Part shown: positions 3-8,209 of the stretch, piece after piece
How the letters are laid out: each line of letters opens with the position of its first letter
How positions within the stretch are numbered: the first letter of the stretch is position 1
Source of the DNA: an uncultured Methanoregula sp.
Lineage (GTDB): Archaea; Halobacteriota; Methanomicrobia; Methanomicrobiales; Methanospirillaceae
Assembly (NCBI RefSeq): GCF_963662735.1
Contig: NZ_OY759744.1
Span: forward strand, 1,468,153-1,532,152
DNA length: 64,000 nucleotides
Direction: 5' to 3'
The notes under the pieces: generated by a model
The model's input: only the letters and a program-made list of their open reading frames with translations
Database searches by the model: none
What the model was told of the DNA's origin: nothing
Translations under genes and position numbers: made by a program

Positions 3-224
3 TTACCGGAATCCCCGTTTGAAATCCTCGACATCGATCCCGGCCTGCTTGAGGATCCCGATCAATGTTCCCTTCTTTAGTTCCCGGTGGAGCGGGACCG
101 AGAAGACCCGCCATTCTTTTTGAACGACAATGTGGCTCGCAGACTGCCGCTTGATCTCGAATCCCTGTTTCGCAAGGTACTTGACCAGATCTTCTCCGGC
201 AATGACCGGGAGTTTAAGCGACAT
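3..224 (-). CDS. hicA: HicA-type mRNA interferase toxin
   Basis: Predicted small toxin of the HicA family, a double-stranded-RNA-binding fold that cleaves mRNA when not held by HicB. The 73-residue protein begins MSLKLPVIAGEDLVKYL and carries the family signature of a glycine-flanked strand followed by the catalytic histidine in SASHIVV. Family length is 60-90 residues, so it looks complete. A longer open frame reaching position 305 exists, but the start at 224 fits the family and gives an 11-bp overlap with the upstream hicB, which suggests translational coupling. The order is antitoxin first. Family knowledge gives the function; activity is not shown here. Confidence 0.85.
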   Translation of the reverse strand: MSLKLPVIAGEDLVKYLAKQGFEIKRQSASHIVVQKEWRVFSVPLHRELKKGTLIGILKQAGIDVEDFKRGFR

Positions 225-438
225 CCGCCACTTCGACCTTGGAGATTTCGCGGTGATGCGCAGGAGATTTCTTGTGTAACTCTTCCCGCTGGACTTCGAG
301 AACAAGTTCTATTGCTTCTTTGATATTGGCAAGCGCTTCTTCCCGGGTCTCACCCTGGCTGATCGCCCCGGGGATCTCGACGCACTGGACCGTGAAACCG
401 CCTTCTTCCTGGGGTTCGAGCACCACCGTATATTTCAT
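214..438 (-). CDS. hicB: HicB-type antitoxin
   Basis: A 74-residue HicB antitoxin with the partial RNase H-like fold: it opens MKYTVVLEPQEEGGFTVQ, then CVEIPGAISQGETREEAL, the usual HicB pattern (glycine-rich strand, then a proline-glycine turn and a helix). It neutralises the HicA protein encoded immediately downstream and overlapping it by 11 bp. It has only a short charged tail after the core and no clear DNA-binding domain, so autoregulation, if any, would need another factor. A TATA-like GTATAC lies about 25-30 bp upstream of the start, around 462-467. Confidence 0.85.
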   Translation of the reverse strand: MKYTVVLEPQEEGGFTVQCVEIPGAISQGETREEALANIKEAIELVLEVQREELHKKSPAHHREISKVEVADVA

Positions 439-676: not shown

Positions 677-1894
677 ATGCTTATAGAAATTCGAATTGGT
701 CCCGGAAAACGGAAAATCGCCAGTTGGATTTCTCATTTTTGTGATAAATGCCGAATCCCTGAAAATAAAATTCATCGAGTTCCGCATATCACTTTGTATG
801 GAAGTTTTGCGGCAGATCATGGTCAAGTTGAAAGAATAAAATCCGTGCTGACAACTATCGGAAGAAAATATTCATTTTTACCCTTCACGATCGACGGTTT
901 AGAATGCATTGATGGAGACAAAGGCATTGTTGTTTATTTTAAAATTGTTCCCTCACCGGAACTCAAACAATTTAGAGATGAACTAGCTTGGAACCTGCTT
1001 ACCATAGTTCCCGATACCAAACCCTTTGATTTTGATAAGAATTTTCTTTTTCACTCTACATTGGCCTATAAGTTGTCCGAGTCGGAGTATAACCGGATAT
1101 CAGAATATGTAAATTCAGTTGATTCAGCTTCCGATGATTTTATTATGCCATATTTTTATTTGCCAATGGCTGCGCTGCGGATCACTCTCCTCAATAACCA
1201 ATCCCGGATTATTTGCGAATACGATCTCCTCCAGCAAAAACTGATGCCGAGATTGGAATCACTTAGTAAACATGAATGGCAACGGACTTCGAAATTATTC
1301 CGATTGAAAAAGGGAATCGAAGGGTATTACGAGTCCTCGGATTCGATTTATCTTTGCAGCGACCTTCACTTCGACCATTCTAATGTAATCAATTACTGTG
1401 CACGGCCATTTTTATCTTCCAATGTCCACGAGATGAATGCTGTACTCGTCAATAATTGGAATAACTGTGTTCAAGATTCGAATACCGTCTATTTTTTGGG
1501 CGATCTCACATTTGGCAGGGGAGCAAGACCTGCGGAATATTGGCTGTCAAAACTTCGTGGGAAAATTCAGTTTATTCGAGGAAATCACGAAGAATGTGTG
1601 AAAGACTCCCGGGAATCCGCCATCTTGAACCATAAGGATCACCGGTTCCTGCTTATCCATGATCCAAAATGTCGGCCAGCACAATGGGACGGCTGGGTAA
1701 TACATGGCCATGTTCATAACAACGATATGAAGAATTATCCGTTCATTAACGGAGAGAAAAAGACAATTAATGTAAGTGCTGAACTTACGAATTACAGACC
1801 GGTTAGTCTTGATTACATTCTTTCCCTGGATCTTGATACCATTCAACGAATGGATACTATCGATAGCATTCCTCAACGGAATATCAGCGTTTGA
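677..1894 (+). CDS. 2H phosphoesterase fused to calcineurin-like metallophosphoesterase
   Basis: A 405-residue two-domain protein. Residues about 1-190 form a 2H (2'-5' RNA ligase/LigT-like) phosphoesterase domain with both paired motifs, H37-I-T39 in VPHITLYG and H126-S-T128 in FHSTLAY. Residues about 220-390 form a calcineurin-like metallophosphoesterase with the metal-ligand series SDLHFDH, GDLTFG, GNHE, LIHDP and GHVH. 2H enzymes open cyclic phosphates or cut 2'-5' oligonucleotide linkages, and the second domain typically removes phosphates, so the pair could process RNA ends or nucleotide signals; this is inference. It stands alone in an accessory block beside an ApeA-like HEPN gene. Start: ATG 677 with GGAGAG at 662-667; an in-frame TTG at 674 is possible. 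Confidence 0.8.
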   Translation: MLIEIRIGPGKRKIASWISHFCDKCRIPENKIHRVPHITLYGSFAADHGQVERIKSVLTTIGRKYSFLPFTIDGLECIDGDKGIVVYFKIVPSPELKQFRDELAWNLLTIVPDTKPFDFDKNFLFHSTLAYKLSESEYNRISEYVNSVDSASDDFIMPYFYLPMAALRITLLNNQSRIICEYDLLQQKLMPRLESLSKHEWQRTSKLFRLKKGIEGYYESSDSIYLCSDLHFDHSNVINYCARPFLSSNVHEMNAVLVNNWNNCVQDSNTVYFLGDLTFGRGARPAEYWLSKLRGKIQFIRGNHEECVKDSRESAILNHKDHRFLLIHDPKCRPAQWDGWVIHGHVHNNDMKNYPFINGEKKTINVSAELTNYRPVSLDYILSLDLDTIQRMDTIDSIPQRNISV

Positions 1895-1994
1895 TCCTGC
1901 GTGTGAGTACGGCGGGGTCGGGATTGTTGGAATAGGCAGATTCGGGACCGTATTAAAGCCGAGTCCATTAAATTGTCATTAATTGTTTGGAAAA

Positions 1995-3419
1995 TCACAA
2001 ATTAAATGTAATAAAATTCTGACTAAATTGACGTGAAGAAATTTTATTCGCGAATTTTTGTGCCTCATCTCTTGTGAAACCTAATTCAAGGAGAATAAGA
2101 TATTGAATTATTGCTTTCAGTTGCTGTGTTGCTTTGACAATATCTGTACCCGATAAGGCCTTTTTCTCTAAATTTGAACTGTAATGTGTGAGGTAATTTC
2201 TCGTATCGGTTACTTCTCGAGCAAAATGCTCACGATGGAAATTAAAAATAAAACCCAATTCACAATACTCCGAGAACAGCTCTTTAAGACGATAATATAA
2301 ACTGGGTTCATTCGCGAAAGCTAGTTTAGGTTTGAGCCATGTTTGCTGATCTTCAGGCAAAGCATGAAGAATGCTTTGTGTCATCTTTCTGAATTCAGTT
2401 TTTTCCAAAAGTTCATTCTTTTTAAATCTTCTATGATAAGATTCAATAGCTTGAACTGCTCCTAAAAATTGGTTATTTATTGACATTTCTGGGTTGAAAA
2501 AAATTGAAAAATACAAATCAATCACAGGTTCGAGTTGTTTTTGTTTTTCAAACCATGTTTTTAATAGATCGCTGAATTTATTTTGAATATCTTTGTAGGT
2601 AAATAACATAAAAATGAAATGAATTTCTTTTTCAACTTCCATTTTTTTATCCAATTGCATGTAAATTCCGATCCATCGATCATATGCCTCCAATTTTTCC
2701 GATACAATCTCTCCAGAAAAATTGTATGGATATACTGGTGTCATAATGCCGAGGCTTAGGAAATATCGTATTTGAGTTATAATTTTCAAAAAATTCGATA
2801 ATTTTTCTTCAGAATTAGACTCTATGGTAATTCTTGGAGTTTGAACAATTTTCACTTCAGATAACGGATTATAACTTGGTCCACTACGCCTGAAATCAAT
2901 AGACATCGTGAATTGGTCATTTAATTTTACAATTATTGATTTTGGGCGAGAATATTCCACAATGAATTTGATATCATCCTTTTCATGATCCACTTCGTGG
3001 TCAACATGGAATCCAGATATTCCTAACCATTCAGTCAGATTGTTCAGACTGAAACTAATTTTTTTGAACTTTATTTCATCTACTGTTAAAAAATGATGAG
3101 AAATGTATGCAGCGGTACAGAAATAACCACTTTTTTGATATGAATAATATTCCGATGAATTCAACCTGCGGGTTCCACTTGGGCCCCCAGAGAAGGCACA
3201 TCCATATAGCGTTATTTGTATTCCTTTTTCCGAAATTCCATTTATTATGTCACTGCAAGAAAAGGGAGAGCAATTTTTTTCGGAATTAAATTCGCTATTT
3301 AGATCTAATTTTATTCCCTCTCGATAATTGTATGATAAAGTACCGTTTATTCTATCATCAGGAAACTCTGGTTTCCACCAAGTGCCATCACAAAAAAATT
3401 TTTCCTTAAATTTATCCAT
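1995..3419 (-). CDS. apeA: ApeA-like HEPN anti-phage protein
   Basis: A 474-residue protein with the layout of the ApeA family: a long beta-rich N-terminal part (about 1-250) and a C-terminal helical HEPN domain. The HEPN RNase motif R-x4-H is present as R407-NYLT-H412. ApeA proteins are known single-gene anti-phage systems whose HEPN domain is thought to cleave RNA and stop growth on infection. The gene is markedly AT-richer than the surrounding chromosome and uses A/T-ending codons, which points to recent transfer. It is monocistronic. The family call rests on the motif, length and domain order read by eye; the exact N-terminal subtype is uncertain. Confidence 0.78.
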   Translation of the reverse strand: MDKFKEKFFCDGTWWKPEFPDDRINGTLSYNYREGIKLDLNSEFNSEKNCSPFSCSDIINGISEKGIQITLYGCAFSGGPSGTRRLNSSEYYSYQKSGYFCTAAYISHHFLTVDEIKFKKISFSLNNLTEWLGISGFHVDHEVDHEKDDIKFIVEYSRPKSIIVKLNDQFTMSIDFRRSGPSYNPLSEVKIVQTPRITIESNSEEKLSNFLKIITQIRYFLSLGIMTPVYPYNFSGEIVSEKLEAYDRWIGIYMQLDKKMEVEKEIHFIFMLFTYKDIQNKFSDLLKTWFEKQKQLEPVIDLYFSIFFNPEMSINNQFLGAVQAIESYHRRFKKNELLEKTEFRKMTQSILHALPEDQQTWLKPKLAFANEPSLYYRLKELFSEYCELGFIFNFHREHFAREVTDTRNYLTHYSSNLEKKALSGTDIVKATQQLKAIIQYLILLELGFTRDEAQKFANKISSRQFSQNFITFNL

Positions 3420-3579
3420 TGTAATACTATTAACTTCTATATCTTCAATAATTCTTCTAACCGTGTCTAATTCAGATTCGCATAAAGTGAATTAATGAGT
3501 ATAATAAGAACAGCCCGTTGTTATAGCTAGTACTAGTTGCAACCTTTTCTATAATCCTTCCCGAATGTAATCCCCCCCC

Positions 3580-3643
3580 TTCACTTTCACCATCCCCAAT
3601 CCTCACTTCTATAAATACCGGAGCCAATCTGTACCCCACGTAA
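3580..3643 (+). promoter_or_regulatory. uvrA-like promoter in front of the broken uvrA copy
   Basis: TTCACTTTC at 3580-3588 is followed 30 bp later by TATAAATA at 3610-3617 and by the ATG of the uvrA fragment at 3644, about 30 bp on. The same box-to-TATA layout precedes intact uvrA and uvrB, but the surrounding bases have diverged although the coding copy behind it is about 98% identical. Confidence 0.55.
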
Positions 3644-3949
3644 ATGAAAGACATCATCATCAAAGGTGCACGCCAGCACAACCTCAAAAATGTCAGCGTC
3701 ACGATCCCGCGGGACAAGCTCGTGGTGATCACCGGGGTCTCCGGCTCCGGGAAATCAACGCTCGCATTCGATACCCTCTACGCGGAAGGCCAGCGCCGGT
3801 ACGCCTGAGTCCCTCTCCTCGTATGCCCGCCAGTTCCTCGGCATCATGCAGAAACCGGATGTCGATTCCATCGAGGGGCTCTCTCCTGCCATCTCCATAG
3901 AACAGAAGACCACCTCCAAGAATCCCCGGAGCACGGTCGGGACCGTCAC
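3644..3949 (+). pseudogene. uvrA: uvrA 5' fragment, frameshifted duplicate
   Basis: These 306 bp repeat the first 305 bp of intact uvrA (5402-5706) with one extra base and about four substitutions. The extra base lies near 3803-3806, where intact uvrA reads TACGTCGAG and this copy reads TACGCCTGAG, giving a TGA stop after 54 codons (3806-3808). The fragment keeps the first Walker A motif, GVSGSGKST, but cannot make a working ATPase. Similarity starts exactly at the ATG and ends sharply after GACCGTCAC. The two copies form a direct repeat with a 1758-bp offset, enclosing the DUF1016 gene. Confidence 0.93.
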
Positions 3950-4131
3950 TGATGTCGGGATCGCACCGGTGAAAACCTCGAAACCGTGTCGGGCAAATGT
4001 CGGGATTAACGGGATTATGAATGGTTTCTGGCGGGTTTGTTGCGGGTTTATCCGGACCTGAAACCATCGCCCGGATATTTCATTAACTATATTTCTTTCC
4101 CGATTAAATCTGACCGGTAACACGGCAGAAT

Positions 4132-5301
4132 GTGCCGGGGGAATTCCTTGTGAGTAAGAAAAAGACGGACCTTGCGATCTCCGGGGAGCCGGAAGATTCG
4201 GATCTGCCATCACTGGTCCGGAGGATTGCGGATATCCACAATCAGCTGGTTGAACGCGCGACAAAAGCAGTGAATGTAAGCCTGACCCTGCGCAACTGGC
4301 TCATTGGTCTCTCGATCCAGAACTACGAGCTCGAAGGGAGGGACCGTGCCACGTACGGGGACCGGTTATTCTCAAAGCTTGCCGGGGACCTTACTTCACG
4401 CGGCGTTTCGAATTGCAGTCGTCGCCAGTTGTACCATTACCGGGATTTTTACCTCGCATATCCTCATATTGTGGGTTCGCTGCCCCCACAATTACAGGAC
4501 CTGCTTCCCCTTCCGGAAGTTTTCGCTCCGGCAATTGTGGGTTCACTGCACCCACAATCCGGCGAAGGCTCCCCGGATCTCCTTCACCGTCTGTCATACA
4601 CGCATTTTGAAGAACTCGTTGCAATCGAAGATCCCCTGAAGCGATCGTTCTACGAAGAGGAATGTGTCCGTGGGAACTGGTCCGTACGGGAGTTGCAGCG
4701 CCAGATCGGCAGCCTGTACTATGAACGGACCGCAATGTCGAAGGACAAAAAACGTCTCGCAAGGACCGTTTTGGGAAAAGCCGAACTCATGAATCCCTCA
4801 CAGGTCATCCGGGATCCGTACATATTCGAGTTTCTCGGGCTGCACCCTCACGAAGCACTCAGTGAAGCAAATCTCGAAGGGCAGCTGATCGACCGGTTGC
4901 AGGAGTTCCTCCTGGAGCTTGGCCGGGGATTCTGCTTCGAGGCCCGGCAGAAACGCATCCTTATCGGAGGGGAGCATTTCTTTGTCGACCTGGTCTTTTA
5001 TCACCGGATCCTGAAATGCCATGTCCTGATCGAGTTGAAGGTCGATACATTCTCCCATGAATATCTCGGCCAGCTGAATACGTACGTGAACTGGTTCCGG
5101 CACAATGAAATGACTGGCGATGATAATCCCCCGATTGGAATCCTGCTCTGCACCAGGAAGAACGAAGCACTCGTTGAGTATGCACTTGCGGGAATGGATA
5201 ACAAGTTGTTCGTCTCGAAATACCAGGTCGCACTTCCGGGAAAAGAGGAGATCCGTCATTTCATCGAGGAACAGATCCGAAACGATGGAGATATGCGGTA
5301 A
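4132..5301 (+). CDS. DUF1016/YhcG-family PD-(D/E)XK nuclease
   Basis: A 389-residue protein of the DUF1016 (YhcG) family, a group with an N-terminal helical domain and a C-terminal PD-(D/E)XK nuclease fold often found among defence and mobile genes. The nuclease core is visible: D286 in FFVDLVFYH, then E301-L-K303 in VLIELKVD, then a conserved QLNTYVNWF helix. Positions about 112-143 contain a doubled IVGSL.PQ segment, encoded by two near-identical palindromes. Start is GTG 4132 or, with a GGGGG ribosome site at 4137-4141, GTG 4150. It lies between the broken and intact uvrA copies on the same strand, so it probably arrived with the duplication. Its target is unknown. Confidence 0.85.
4468..4558 (+). 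repeat. Two copies of an in-gene palindrome
   Basis: ATTGTGGG (4468-4475) pairs with CCCACAAT (4485-4492), and again ATTGTGGG (4534-4541) pairs with CCCACAAT (4551-4558). Both stems are perfect 8-mers with 9-base spacers, and they are in the same reading frame, coding the repeated peptide IVGSL.PQ inside the DUF1016 protein. Confidence 0.85.
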
Positions 5302-5337
5302 GGATGTTTCCCGGCGTTTGGCCGGGGAATTTTTCTC

Positions 5338-5401
5338 TTCACTTTCATGCCCCAACCTGAACCCCTTTAAATCCCGGAACTGATTGTCTGAGCACATATT
5401 C
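5338..5401 (+). promoter_or_regulatory. uvrA promoter with TTCACTTTC box
   Basis: TTCACTTTC at 5338-5346, then TTTAAAT at 5366-5372, 28 bp downstream of the start of the box, and ATG at 5402 about 30 bp after the TATA element. This predicts a leaderless or nearly leaderless transcript. The box and its spacing recur before uvrB (23846) and before the broken uvrA copy (3580). Confidence 0.6.
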
Positions 5402-8209
5402 ATGAAAGACATCATCATCAAAGGTGCACGCCAGCACAACCTCAAAAATGTCAGCGTCACGATCCCGCGGGACAAGCTCGTGGTGATCACCGGGGTCTCC
5501 GGCTCCGGGAAATCAACGCTCGCATTCGATACCCTCTACGCGGAAGGCCAGCGCCGGTACGTCGAGTCCCTCTCCTCGTACGCCCGGCAGTTCCTCGGCA
5601 TCATGCAGAAACCGGATGTCGATTCCATCGAGGGGCTCTCTCCTGCCATCTCCATAGAACAGAAGACCACTTCCAAGAATCCCCGGAGCACGGTCGGGAC
5701 CGTCACGGAGATCTACGATTACCTCCGGCTCCTCTATGCCCGGATCGGGACGCCGTTCTGTCCCGAGCACAATATCCCGATCGCGGCCCAGACCCCGGAC
5801 CGGATCGCCGACCAGATCGCGGCCGAGCACCCGGGCATGATCACGGTCCTCGCCCCCATTGTCCGCCAGAAGAAGGGGACGTACCAGCAGCTCTTGAAAG
5901 ACCTCAACAAGGAAGGGTTCACCCGGGTCCGGGTCAACGGGAAGATCATCCGGACCGATGAGGAGATCAAGCTCGACCGGTACAAGATGCAGGACATCGA
6001 GATCGTCATCGACCGGCTCGAAGCCTCGGAACGCTCCCGGCTTGCCGAGGCGGTGGAGAACTGCCTCAGGAAATCCGAGGGGCTCGTACTCGTTGCCGAC
6101 GAAGAAGGGAAGGAGTCCACGTACTCCTCCCTCATGGCCTGCCCGGTCTGCGGGATGGCATTCGAGGAACTCCAGCCCCGGATGTTCTCGTTCAACAGCC
6201 CGTTCGGCGCCTGCGAGGAGTGCCACGGGCTCGGGGTGAAGATGGAATTCGATCCCGACCTGATCATCCCGGACAAGGAGCGGTGCATCGCGGACGGCGC
6301 CATCGCCCCGTACCGTAACGCCATGGACGGGTTCCGGGGCCAGTATCTCGCAACGGTTGCGAAGAACTACGGCTTCTCGGCCCTCACCCCGATCAAGGAT
6401 CTCACTACGGAACAGTACGAGGCGCTGATGTTCGGCTCCTCGAAGCGGATGAAGTTCTCGATGAGCATGAAAGGCGGCGACGCCGAGTGGTCGCACACCG
6501 GGGAATGGGAAGGCCTCCTCCCCCAGACCGCCCGGCTCTATGCCCAGACCCAGTCGGACTGGCGCAAGCGCGAGCTCGAAGGCTACATGCGGGTCTCACC
6601 CTGCCCGGCCTGCAACGGGAAGCGGCTCAAGGACAAGGTGCTCGCGGTCCGGATCGACGGGAAATCGATCATCGATGTCACGGACATGTCGATTTCGGAA
6701 GGTATCGCGTTCTTTAAAAACATCCGGCTGACCCCCAGGGAAGCGGAGATTGCCAACCTGATCACCAAGGAGATCAAGAGCCGGATCGATTTTCTGGAAA
6801 AAGTCGGCCTCGGGTACCTCACGCTCTCCCGGAACGCCGGGACGCTCTCCGGCGGGGAAGCCCAGAGGATCCGGCTCGCAACCCAGATCGGGTCGAACCT
6901 GATGGGCGTGCTCTATGTCCTCGACGAACCCTCCATCGGGCTCCACCAGCGCGACAACCGGAAACTCATCGAGACCCTCCGGACGCTCCGCGACCTCGGC
7001 AACACGGTGCTCGTGGTGGAACATGACGAGGACATGATCCGGTCCGCAGAGCACGTGATCGACATGGGCCCCGGTGCCGGAATGCACGGCGGCCATATCG
7101 TCGCTGAAGGCAACCCGAAGCAGATCGAGAAGAACAAAAAGTCCCTCACCGGCCAGTACCTTGCCGGGGCAAAGATGATCGATGTGCCCACAACGAGGAG
7201 GGTGCCGAAGAAGTACATCACGGTGAAAAAGTGCCGGGAGAACAACCTCAAGGGCATTACCGCGAAGTTCCCCATCGGCCTCCTCACGGTCGTTACCGGG
7301 GTCTCGGGCAGCGGGAAGTCGACCCTCGTGTACGAGACGCTCTACAAGGGCACGATGCAGATCATCAACAAGTCCCGGGAGCAGGCCGGGAAGCACGACG
7401 CGATCGTCTTCGATGCCGAGATCGACAAGGTGATCGTCATCGACCAATCCCCGATCGGGAAGACCCCCCGGTCCAATCCCGCCACCTACACGAAAGTCTT
7501 CGACGAGATCCGGACGGTCTTTGCCGAGACCAAGGAGGCGAAGATGCGGGGCTTCAAGCCGGGCCGGTTCTCCTTCAACATCCGTGGCGGGCGGTGCGAG
7601 GCGTGCGAAGGCGATGGTCTCATCAAGATCGAGATGAACTTCCTCCCCGATGTGTACATCGAGTGCGAGGAGTGCAAGGGCAAGCGGTACAACCGCGAGA
7701 CCCTGGAGGTACTGTACAAGGGGAAATCTATCGCCGACGTCCTCGACATGAGCGTTGAAGAAGCGATGAAGCACTTCGAGAACATTCCCTCGATCCGGGC
7801 CAAGCTGGAGACCCTGTCGAGAGTCGGGCTCGACTACATCAAGCTCGGCCAGTCATCAACAACCCTCTCGGGCGGCGAGGCGCAGCGGATCAAGCTCACC
7901 CGCGAGCTTGCCAAGCGTGCAACCGGCAGGACCCTCTACCTTCTGGACGAGCCGACCACCGGTCTCCACTTCGACGACACGAAGAAGCTGATCAAGGTGC
8001 TCGACGATCTCGTGGAGAAGGGCAATACCGTGATCGTCATCGAACATAACCTCGATGTTGTCAAGTCGGCCGACCATCTCATCGACATCGGGCCGGAGGG
8101 CGGGGATGCCGGCGGCGAGATCGTGGCAACCGGGACCCCGGAGCAGGTAGCAGCTGTTGCCGGGAGTTATACCGGGCAGTTTTTGAAGCCCATCCTCAAC
8201 CCTTCCTGA
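5402..8209 (+). CDS. uvrA: Excinuclease ABC subunit A
   Basis: UvrA, the damage-sensing ABC ATPase dimer of nucleotide excision repair that loads UvrB on distorted DNA. The 935-residue length is normal. It has two ABC modules: first Walker [10 protein letters not shown] near residue 33 with signature LSGGEAQRI and Walker B LYVLDEPS; second Walker [10 protein letters not shown] with LSGGEAQRI and [10 protein letters not shown]. Zinc-finger cysteines are seen as CPVC...CEEC, CPAC and CEAC...CEEC. The start is ATG 5402, supported by the TATA spacing; a TTG six codons upstream would fall near the predicted transcription start. uvrC follows 77 bp later on the same strand, probably co-transcribed. 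uvrB is about 14 kb away. Confidence 0.97.

What the first reader, a model, noticed from the sequence alone, without database searches (positions are those of the whole stretch)
677..3419. 2H-phosphoesterase/metallophosphoesterase fusion next to an ApeA-type HEPN gene
One protein carries both HxT motifs of a 2H enzyme (H37/T39, H126/T128) and the full metal-site series of a calcineurin-like phosphatase. The first activity opens cyclic phosphates or cuts 2'-5' linkages and the second removes phosphates; together they could heal RNA ends or destroy a nucleotide alarm signal. Its converging neighbour is an AT-rich ApeA-like HEPN protein, likely an RNase. An RNA-cutting defence gene beside an RNA-end or signal-processing fusion would be a new pairing, although both could simply sit in the same defence island.
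Basis: partly seen in the sequence, partly recalled or inferred. Interest (0 to 1): 0.72.

Follow-up and report, generated by a model that had tools for sequence, protein, structure and literature searches.

The report
Predicted two-in-one phosphate-removing enzyme
The window of a methane-producing archaeon really does hold one protein that joins two different phosphate-cutting enzymes, but it belongs to an old and mostly household archaeal family, and its place beside an RNA-cutting defence gene looks accidental.

Summary
Window 677-1894 (+) encodes a 405-aa 2H-metallophosphoesterase (MPE) fusion with both HxT motifs and every MPE metal ligand. Window 1995-3419 (-) encodes an ApeA-type HEPN protein, tail to tail with it. 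The pairing does not hold. ApeA's HEPN occurs in 7 of 100 sampled genomes of the order (own included) and lies beside the fusion only here. In the nearest relative the homologous block (89% identical) stops 41 bp short of ApeA. The fusion is an old archaeal family: 34 of 39 Methanoregula genomes carry a paralogue, mostly near mutS/mutL where read. The window copy is a second, probably horizontally acquired type, in a toxin-antitoxin/defence island. Best-supported reaction: 2H opens a 2',3'-type cyclic phosphate and MPE removes the phosphate; the substrate is unproven. The recurrent partner of this 2H subfamily is a NUDIX hydrolase, not ApeA: in a Dehalococcoidia-class sample 8 of 8 NUDIX genes of one subfamily adjoin it, 7 of 8 with LemA upstream, 2 of 8 fused to MPE. 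The window's genome lacks that NUDIX. I found neither fusion nor cassette described in what I could read. Verdict: real architecture, known chemistry, defence pairing unsupported; the NUDIX link is the lead worth testing.

The parts
677..1894 (+). 2H-MPE fusion protein, 405 aa (alternative TTG start at 674)
677..1231 (+). 2H phosphoesterase-like domain, residues 1-185
   Evidence: PF13563 45.3 bits; structural match of residues 1-185 to Usb1, LigT and CPDase
785..793 (+). first HxT motif, H37-x-T39
1052..1060 (+). second HxT motif, H126-x-T128
1337..1831 (+). calcineurin-like metallophosphoesterase domain, residues 221-385; ligands D229, H231, D276, N303, H304, H328, H345, H347
   Evidence: PHROG 547 3.9e-38; AQ665 (1xm7) Z 16.8 over residues 221-385; motifs
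1995..3419 (-). ApeA-type protein, 474 aa: ApeA_NTD1 (residues 11-289) + HEPN (319-451); R-x4-H at 407-412. A neighbour, not judged part of a system with the fusion
3..305 (-). HicA toxin gene (start codon uncertain)
   Evidence: PF07927 54.3 bits, cut-off 27
214..438 (-). HicB-like antitoxin ORF, divergent from the fusion
   Evidence: read in locus L041 13367-13591; phmmer to PDB HicB 1e-06
4132..5301 (+). YhcG/DUF1016 PD-(D/E)XK nuclease (PADLOC candidate PDC-S02); an island neighbour
   Evidence: PF06250 188.8 bits; PDC-S02 1.3e-128
3579..3952 (+). truncated duplicate of the 5' end of the next gene (uvrA-like, name recalled)
   Evidence: 92% identical to 5337-5709

Best explanation
The protein is most likely a bifunctional end-cleaning enzyme. 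Its 2H half opens a 2',3'-type cyclic phosphate, on RNA fragments or 2',3'-cyclic nucleotides, to a 2'- or 3'-monophosphate. The fused metal-dependent half then removes that phosphate and leaves a hydroxyl end. In Methanomicrobiales this most likely serves turnover of RNA fragments or nucleotides rather than heal-and-seal repair. The window copy is a second, probably horizontally acquired version that landed in a toxin-antitoxin/defence island, and ApeA beside it is a coincidental island mate. Shown: domain architecture, intact catalytic and metal residues, family distribution, separate place in the tree, lack of a recurrent ApeA link. Inferred: both activities, their order, the substrate, the transfer and the physiological role.
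For: Both active sites are intact in the window protein and in most of 58 ORFs carrying both domains. Separate but overlapping 2H and MPE genes occur in two other Methanoregula (L049, L050), and a NUDIX-MPE gene stands directly before a 2H gene in L197, so the two activities are linked outside the fusion too. The 2H half matches Usb1, CPDase and LigT structures, the MPE half AQ665 and LpxH. Paper passages read: 2H enzymes open RNA 2',3'-cyclic phosphates and linear phosphatases then act (PMC7824862, PMC9503650). By my count of the rows, 34 of 39 Methanoregula genomes carry a paralogous fusion (one with a stop, one cut by a contig edge). Of 8 such loci read, 7 share the MutS and MutL gene clusters, and 6 or 7 share pyridoxamine-oxidase-like, thioredoxin-like and peptidase genes: a household setting. 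The KptA 2'-phosphotransferase is absent from 100 of 100 sampled genomes of the order while 3 of 14 control genomes ring, so a 2'-phosphate would need another remover there. The tree puts the window copy with Chloroflexota and distant archaeal copies (100/98), apart from the Methanoregula paralogue.
Against: No activity was measured. The KptA argument is confounded by ancestry: 33 of the 100 genomes without KptA also have no match to the fusion protein, and outside the order four of four carriers checked (G111, G133, G168, G417) do have KptA. The Rnl3-type ATP-dependent RNA ligase is absent from 100 of 100, which argues against sealing but says nothing on turnover. In six copies (L027, L033, L064, L082, L088, L200) the 2H half has lost its catalytic histidines while MPE stays intact; in one (L065) it is the MPE ligands that are lost; in four Chloroflexota copies (L035, L036, L037, L186) N303 of MPE is R, R, W and K. 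So the two-step reaction is not universal in the family. A NUDIX partner in related loci hints at a diphosphate-bearing small molecule instead.
Confidence: 0.5

Rival explanations
1. The fusion clears a small nucleotide, such as ADP-ribose 1'',2''-cyclic phosphate or another cyclic-phosphate nucleotide with a diphosphate. 2H opens the ring, MPE removes the phosphate, and in relatives a NUDIX enzyme splits the diphosphate.
For: A NUDIX subfamily adjoins this 2H subfamily (within 130 bp) in 8 of 8 loci of a Dehalococcoidia-class sample of 245 genomes; 4 of those 8 were not used to build the profiles (G664, G665, G674, G647: 4 of 4). The next 22 NUDIX loci of the same search give 1 of 22 within 1.5 kb. 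NUDIX also sits beside MPE or 2H in Methanoregula G001 and G025 and in G286, G294 and G343. In G168 an ADP-ribosylglycohydrolase gene abuts the broken fusion (one locus). ADP-ribose cyclic phosphate has one bond for each of the three enzyme types (inference). Passages of PMC9503650 tie 2H and Nudix to ADP-ribose processing.
Against: KptA, the known source of this compound in RNA processing, is absent from 100 of 100 sampled genomes of the order. The window's genome has no match to that NUDIX. 0 of 16 loci with a single-frame fusion listed have it nearby (some with short flanks). In Halobacteriota only 2 of 12 close NUDIX loci lie by a 2H gene (two of the 12 are cut by contig ends).
Confidence: 0.25
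2. The fusion and ApeA form a two-gene defence unit: ApeA cuts RNA and the fusion repairs the ends or removes a signal to switch the response off.
For: Adjacent genes; ApeA has an intact R-x4-H; HEPN RNases leave cyclic phosphates (established knowledge, not tested here); other toxin and defence genes lie around.
Against: Adjacency is seen in one genome only. The homologous block in G001 (L034) covers window -108 to 1954 and ends before ApeA. Genes converge and differ in G+C. Neighbours of the other copies differ.
Confidence: 0.05
3. The fusion degrades cyclic or 2'-5' oligonucleotide immune signals (CBASS, type III CRISPR), as a counter-defence or off-switch.
For: 2H-like folds among the structural matches include a poxvirus cGAMP phosphodiesterase and rotavirus VP3 2',5'-phosphodiesterase (Z 10.1-10.4).
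Against: 0 of 972 matching phage records (of 50,697) cover 80% of the query; none of the 80 viral loci read (best 80 of 375 found) is a fusion; a household copy is near-universal in the genus. Co-occurrence with Cas10 or CBASS was not tested.
Confidence: 0.12

Closest known systems
2H phosphoesterase superfamily (LigT/ThpR, CPDase, Usb1, YjcG)
   Same: Two HxT motifs, PF13563 above its cut-off, fold matched by structure
   Different: Carries a conserved extension after the second motif (R168, E181-Y182-D183) and a fused MPE
Calcineurin-like metallophosphoesterase of the AQ665 / PHROG 547 type
   Same: All metal ligands; best structural match AQ665 (Z 16.8); found as a stand-alone gene in phages
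   Different: Fused behind a 2H domain; below Pfam's own MPE cut-off; the PDB title calls AQ665 a protein of unknown function
Phage RNA-repair gene sets with 2H, Nudix, cREC and calcineurin-like genes (PMC7824862, PMC9503650; passages read)
   Same: Same enzyme classes, proposed there to clean 2',3'-cyclic ends or ADP-ribose cyclic phosphate
   Different: There separate viral genes, often with RNA ligases or sirtuins; here a cellular fusion, with no Rnl3 ligase in 100 sampled genomes of the order
ApeA (HEPN defence protein)
   Same: Neighbour gene meets both ApeA Pfam models and a PADLOC candidate model
   Different: Not a recurrent partner of the fusion

Membership tests
2H phosphoesterase superfamily | two HxT/S motifs | tested here: met
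   H37-x-T39 and H126-x-T128
2H phosphoesterase superfamily | family profile above curated cut-off | tested here: met
   PF13563 45.3 bits, cut-off 27
2H phosphoesterase superfamily | 2H fold | tested here: met
   Z 10-13 to Usb1, CPDase and LigT over residues 1-185, on a model of moderate confidence
2H phosphoesterase superfamily | cyclic phosphodiesterase activity | not testable with these tools
   needs an assay
Calcineurin-like metallophosphoesterase | D-x-H, GD, GNH, H, GHxH metal-site series (motif recalled) | tested here: met
   D229, H231, D276, N303, H304, H328, H345, H347
Calcineurin-like metallophosphoesterase | Pfam profile above curated cut-off | tested here: inconclusive
   PF12850 21.6 bits against 27; PHROG 547 3.9e-38
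Calcineurin-like metallophosphoesterase | fold | tested here: met
   AQ665 Z 16.8 over residues 221-385, LpxH Z 10.8 over 221-396
ApeA (neighbour gene) | ApeA N-terminal domain plus Apea-like HEPN with R-x4-H | tested here: met
   PF18862 160.8 and PF18739 115.2 bits; RNYLTH at 407
Fusion + ApeA defence system | gene pair recurs in independent genomes | tested here: not met
   ApeA HEPN in 7 of 100 genomes, beside the fusion only in the own one; in 293 loci fetched, ApeA only at the own locus and at the G085 locus fetched for it
LemA-NUDIX-2H(-MPE) cassette | NUDIX gene of the subfamily adjoins 2H | tested here: not met
   holds in 8 of 8 loci of the class sampled, but no such NUDIX in the window or its genome, so the window copy is not a member of the cassette
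RNA 3'-end heal-and-seal pathway | a ligase that uses 3'-OH ends | tested here: inconclusive
   Rnl3-type TIGR01209 in 0 of 100 relatives, 2 of 14 controls ring; other ligase types not searched

The most novel reading that the evidence does not exclude
2H, MPE and NUDIX enzymes form an undescribed modular system that dismantles a cyclic-phosphate, diphosphate-bearing nucleotide or RNA end. In a Dehalococcoidia-class group and one Methanoregula it is tied to the membrane through LemA or a hydrophobic domain. The 2H-MPE fusion is a compressed, portable version that moves between methanogens and Chloroflexota.
Probability: 0.25. Interest if true: 0.65.

Novelty: new variant of a known kind. Interest (0 to 1): 0.42.

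Why it matters
If the two-step reaction is right, one archaeal protein turns blocked cyclic-phosphate ends into plain hydroxyl ends without KptA, in an order where KptA was not found in any of 100 sampled genomes. If the NUDIX and LemA link is right, it points to an unknown substrate handled by three hydrolases near a membrane protein of unknown role. Removing the ApeA pairing also saves others from testing a coincidental neighbour.

Tried and rejected
Rejected: the ApeA pairing. Rejected: a phage origin of the fusion. The MPE part is common in phages (972 of 50,697 records match, none covering 80% of the query), the 2H part alone has no phage match, the 80 viral loci kept of 375 found hold MPE only, and one apparent viral fusion (L159) is an MPE gene that starts inside the match. 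Of 72,556 plasmid records 88 match, none over 80%. A first viral scan with the window protein alone found nothing. Rejected as general: KptA complementarity, because four of four fusion carriers checked outside the order have KptA.

Defence enrichment was inconclusive. Among 98 neighbour proteins of window-type copies, PADLOC models at 1e-10 include PDC-S02 and PDC-S58 (window), AbiEi, AbiEii, and MADS models in up to 3 members (25 of 99 families shown). Among 98 of the 108 neighbours listed for household-type copies, the 25 of 32 families shown are methyltransferase models with one member each and mad2 with two. The calls do not name the members; ten proteins tested one by one, eight of them from the first set, had no match.

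Phage neighbourhoods of the MPE gene (four records) gave no recurrent partner. Passages on LigT in Deinococcus led nowhere. A HepT-like gene about 2 kb upstream of the window (L041 10796-11143) is recalled from its sequence only; the PDB search gave nothing. Not done: co-occurrence with Cas10 or CBASS; the second structure prediction; a KptA search in Chloroflexota.

Literature. Searches on 2H with calcineurin-like, metallophosphoesterase, phosphatase fusion, LigT, LemA, Nudix and on COG4186 gave, in the listings and passages I saw, no description of the fusion or of LemA-NUDIX-2H. The 2002 survey of the 2H superfamily and the 2016 survey of RNA repair are not held and may mention either; they are recalled, not read.
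Full report
Names. I take the genus as Methanoregula because G001, whose 7,161-base contig holds a 91% identical copy, matches record L034, titled Methanoregula sp.; that genus is in the order Methanomicrobiales. 'Dehalococcoidia class' means the class of G100, the genome of L037, whose record is titled Dehalococcoidia bacterium; L035 and L038 are titled only Chloroflexi bacterium.

The observation. Window 677-1894 (+) encodes a 405-aa protein with a 2H domain (PF13563, 45.3 bits, cut-off 27) and an MPE domain (PF12850 21.6 bits, below its cut-off of 27; PHROG 547, 3.9e-38). H37/T39, H126/T128 and the MPE ligands D229, H231, D276, N303, H304, H328, H345 and H347 are all present. In 58 distinct ORFs that carry both domains, fragments included, the 2H histidines are kept in 48 and 50, and each of the eight MPE ligands in 51 to 57. 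An AlphaFold2 model (24 rows; mean pLDDT 72.9, pTM 0.55) matches AQ665 (Z 16.8) with residues 221-385, and Usb1, CPDase and LigT (Z 11-13) with residues 1-185. The 2H half has low to moderate confidence. Window 1995-3419 (-) is an ApeA-type HEPN protein with an intact R-x4-H.

The neighbourhood. HicA (3-305) and a HicB-like ORF (214-438) lie upstream of the fusion on the other strand. A minimal nucleotidyltransferase-like gene lies about 2.4 kb upstream of the window (PDB 1wot, 1e-08). Downstream come ApeA, a YhcG-type nuclease (4132-5301) and a uvrA-like gene (name recalled from sequence). About 370 bp around the start of that gene occur twice, at 3579-3952 and 5337-5709 (92%), bracketing the YhcG gene. 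G+C is 40.1% for the fusion, 32.3% for ApeA and 53.2% for the window. This is a patchwork toxin-antitoxin/defence island.

Does ApeA belong to the fusion? No. Across 100 sampled genomes of the order, the own one included, HEPN_Apea is found in 7. In the six others it does not lie beside the fusion: G065 has them about 64 kb apart, G060 and G085 far apart, G013 (2H gene only) and G025 on different contigs, and G049 has no match to the fusion protein. Among all 293 loci fetched, the ApeA protein matches only the own locus and the G085 locus that was fetched for it. In G001 an 89% identical DNA block spans window -108 to 1954 and ends 41 bp before ApeA. There the fusion is flanked on both sides by HicBA-like copies (91% identical to each other over 562 bp), with AbiEi/AbiEii nearby.

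Where else is the fusion? 67 of 100 genomes of the order and 75 of 392 Halobacteriota sampled match the protein somewhere, often in only one domain. By my count of the rows, 34 of 39 Methanoregula genomes carry a paralogous fusion, typically in a frame of 430-530 codons; one has a stop and one is cut by a contig edge. Of eight such loci read, seven share the MutS and MutL clusters, and six or seven share pyridoxamine-oxidase-like, thioredoxin-like and peptidase genes (families named from one member each). The window type is a second clade: Methanoregula G000, G001 and G007, Chloroflexota (52-62% identical in L035-L038 and G570; 47% over part of G614) and scattered Halobacteriota (G111, G133, G417 in the tree). 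The tree joins these 11 rows at 100/98 and the seven Methanoregula and close Chloroflexota rows at 100/99, apart from the 23 Methanoregula paralogues in it (two long branches, L187 and L076, meet and their place is unsure). Two of the three Methanoregula copies (window, G001) sit among toxin or defence genes, with partly different partners; four neighbours of the third (G007) scanned with Pfam gave no recognised defence gene. The Chloroflexota and other archaeal copies sit beside RuvB and RNA polymerase, metabolic enzymes, a TPR protein, DnaJ-HEAT, SfsA, tryptophan synthase, an ADP-ribosylglycohydrolase or a transposase. One (G168) is interrupted by a transposase ORF.

A recurrent partner, but a different one. 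Stand-alone 2H genes of this subfamily and MPE genes lie beside a NUDIX gene in several places. In G001 NUDIX precedes a gene for a hydrophobic region (by eye) plus MPE. In G025 it follows a hydrophobic-2H frame and an MPE frame. In G549 NUDIX is fused to MPE and followed at once by 2H. Anchored on the NUDIX gene, the class sample (245 genomes) has eight close members (E up to 4.5e-30; the next is 3e-13). All eight have 2H within 130 bp; seven have a LemA gene upstream on the same strand (six within 50 bp, G488 about 650 bp away); two are fused to MPE. The next 22 NUDIX loci give one 2H within 1.5 kb, no LemA and no MPE. Four of the eight were not used to build the profiles: 4 of 4 have 2H and 3 of 4 LemA. 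LemA was confirmed by Pfam in L197, L220, L222 and, weaker, L042. Anchored on stand-alone 2H genes instead, 4 of 5 in that class and 3 of 7 in an archaeal family (f10) have the NUDIX gene within 0.7 kb. Results against: in Halobacteriota 2 of 12 close NUDIX loci lie by 2H (two of the 12 cut by contig ends), and 0 of 18 controls. 0 of 16 loci with a single-frame fusion listed, and 0 of 10 stand-alone archaeal MPE loci (L051-L053, L203-L209), have NUDIX in the stretch held. The window's genome has no match to it.

Mechanism. The most economical reading is two steps in one chain: 2H opens a 2',3'-type cyclic phosphate and MPE removes the resulting monophosphate. Passages of PMC7824862 and PMC9503650 say that 2H enzymes do the first step in RNA-end clean-up and that phosphatases follow; the fusion itself is not in the passages I saw. 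KptA, which removes 2'-phosphates elsewhere, is absent from 100 of 100 sampled genomes of the order but present in 176 of 392 Halobacteriota, including G111, G133, G168 and G417, which carry the fusion. So the absence fits but proves nothing. Rnl3-type RNA ligase is also absent from 100 of 100, which favours turnover over sealing. Loss of 2H histidines in six copies, of MPE ligands in one (L065), and of N303 in four Chloroflexota copies shows that the two halves can drift apart. A small-molecule substrate with a diphosphate, such as ADP-ribose 1'',2''-cyclic phosphate, is the main rival because of the NUDIX link; the lack of KptA in the order counts against it there.

Novelty. Both domains and both chemistries are known; the fused architecture and the LemA-NUDIX-2H(-MPE) cassette were not described in what I could read, but the two classic surveys were not held. 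I rate it a new variant of a known kind.

Noticed in passing
window 3579-3952 and 5337-5709: The 5' end of the uvrA-like gene is duplicated (92% identical) on both sides of the YhcG-type nuclease gene; the upstream copy is frame-broken. Looks like an element that entered the gene's 5' end and brought or rebuilt a new start.
   Followed up: partly
L234-L241 (Dehalococcoidia-class genomes); L042, L197: Conserved LemA - NUDIX - 2H gene cassette, in two genomes with MPE fused to NUDIX; in Methanoregula G001 LemA - NUDIX - hydrophobic region plus MPE.
   Followed up: partly
L042 10792-11799 and L046 10322-11293: A similar-looking N-terminal hydrophobic region (judged by eye) is fused to MPE in one Methanoregula and to 2H in another.
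   Followed up: no
L094 9319-9957: The G168 fusion gene is split near residue 309 by an insert with an IS240-type DDE transposase ORF; an ADP-ribosylglycohydrolase gene follows.
   Followed up: partly
L034 4109-4544 and 6177-6612: In G001 the fusion is flanked on both sides by similar HicBA-like modules (91% over 562 bp) in the same orientation, which could have served its transfer.
   Followed up: partly
L027, L033, L064, L082, L088, L200: Fusions whose 2H half has lost its catalytic histidines while the MPE ligands stay intact; L065 shows the reverse.
   Followed up: partly
L035, L036, L037, L186: Chloroflexota copies replace the MPE metal ligand N303 by R, R, W and K while keeping the other ligands.
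   Followed up: no
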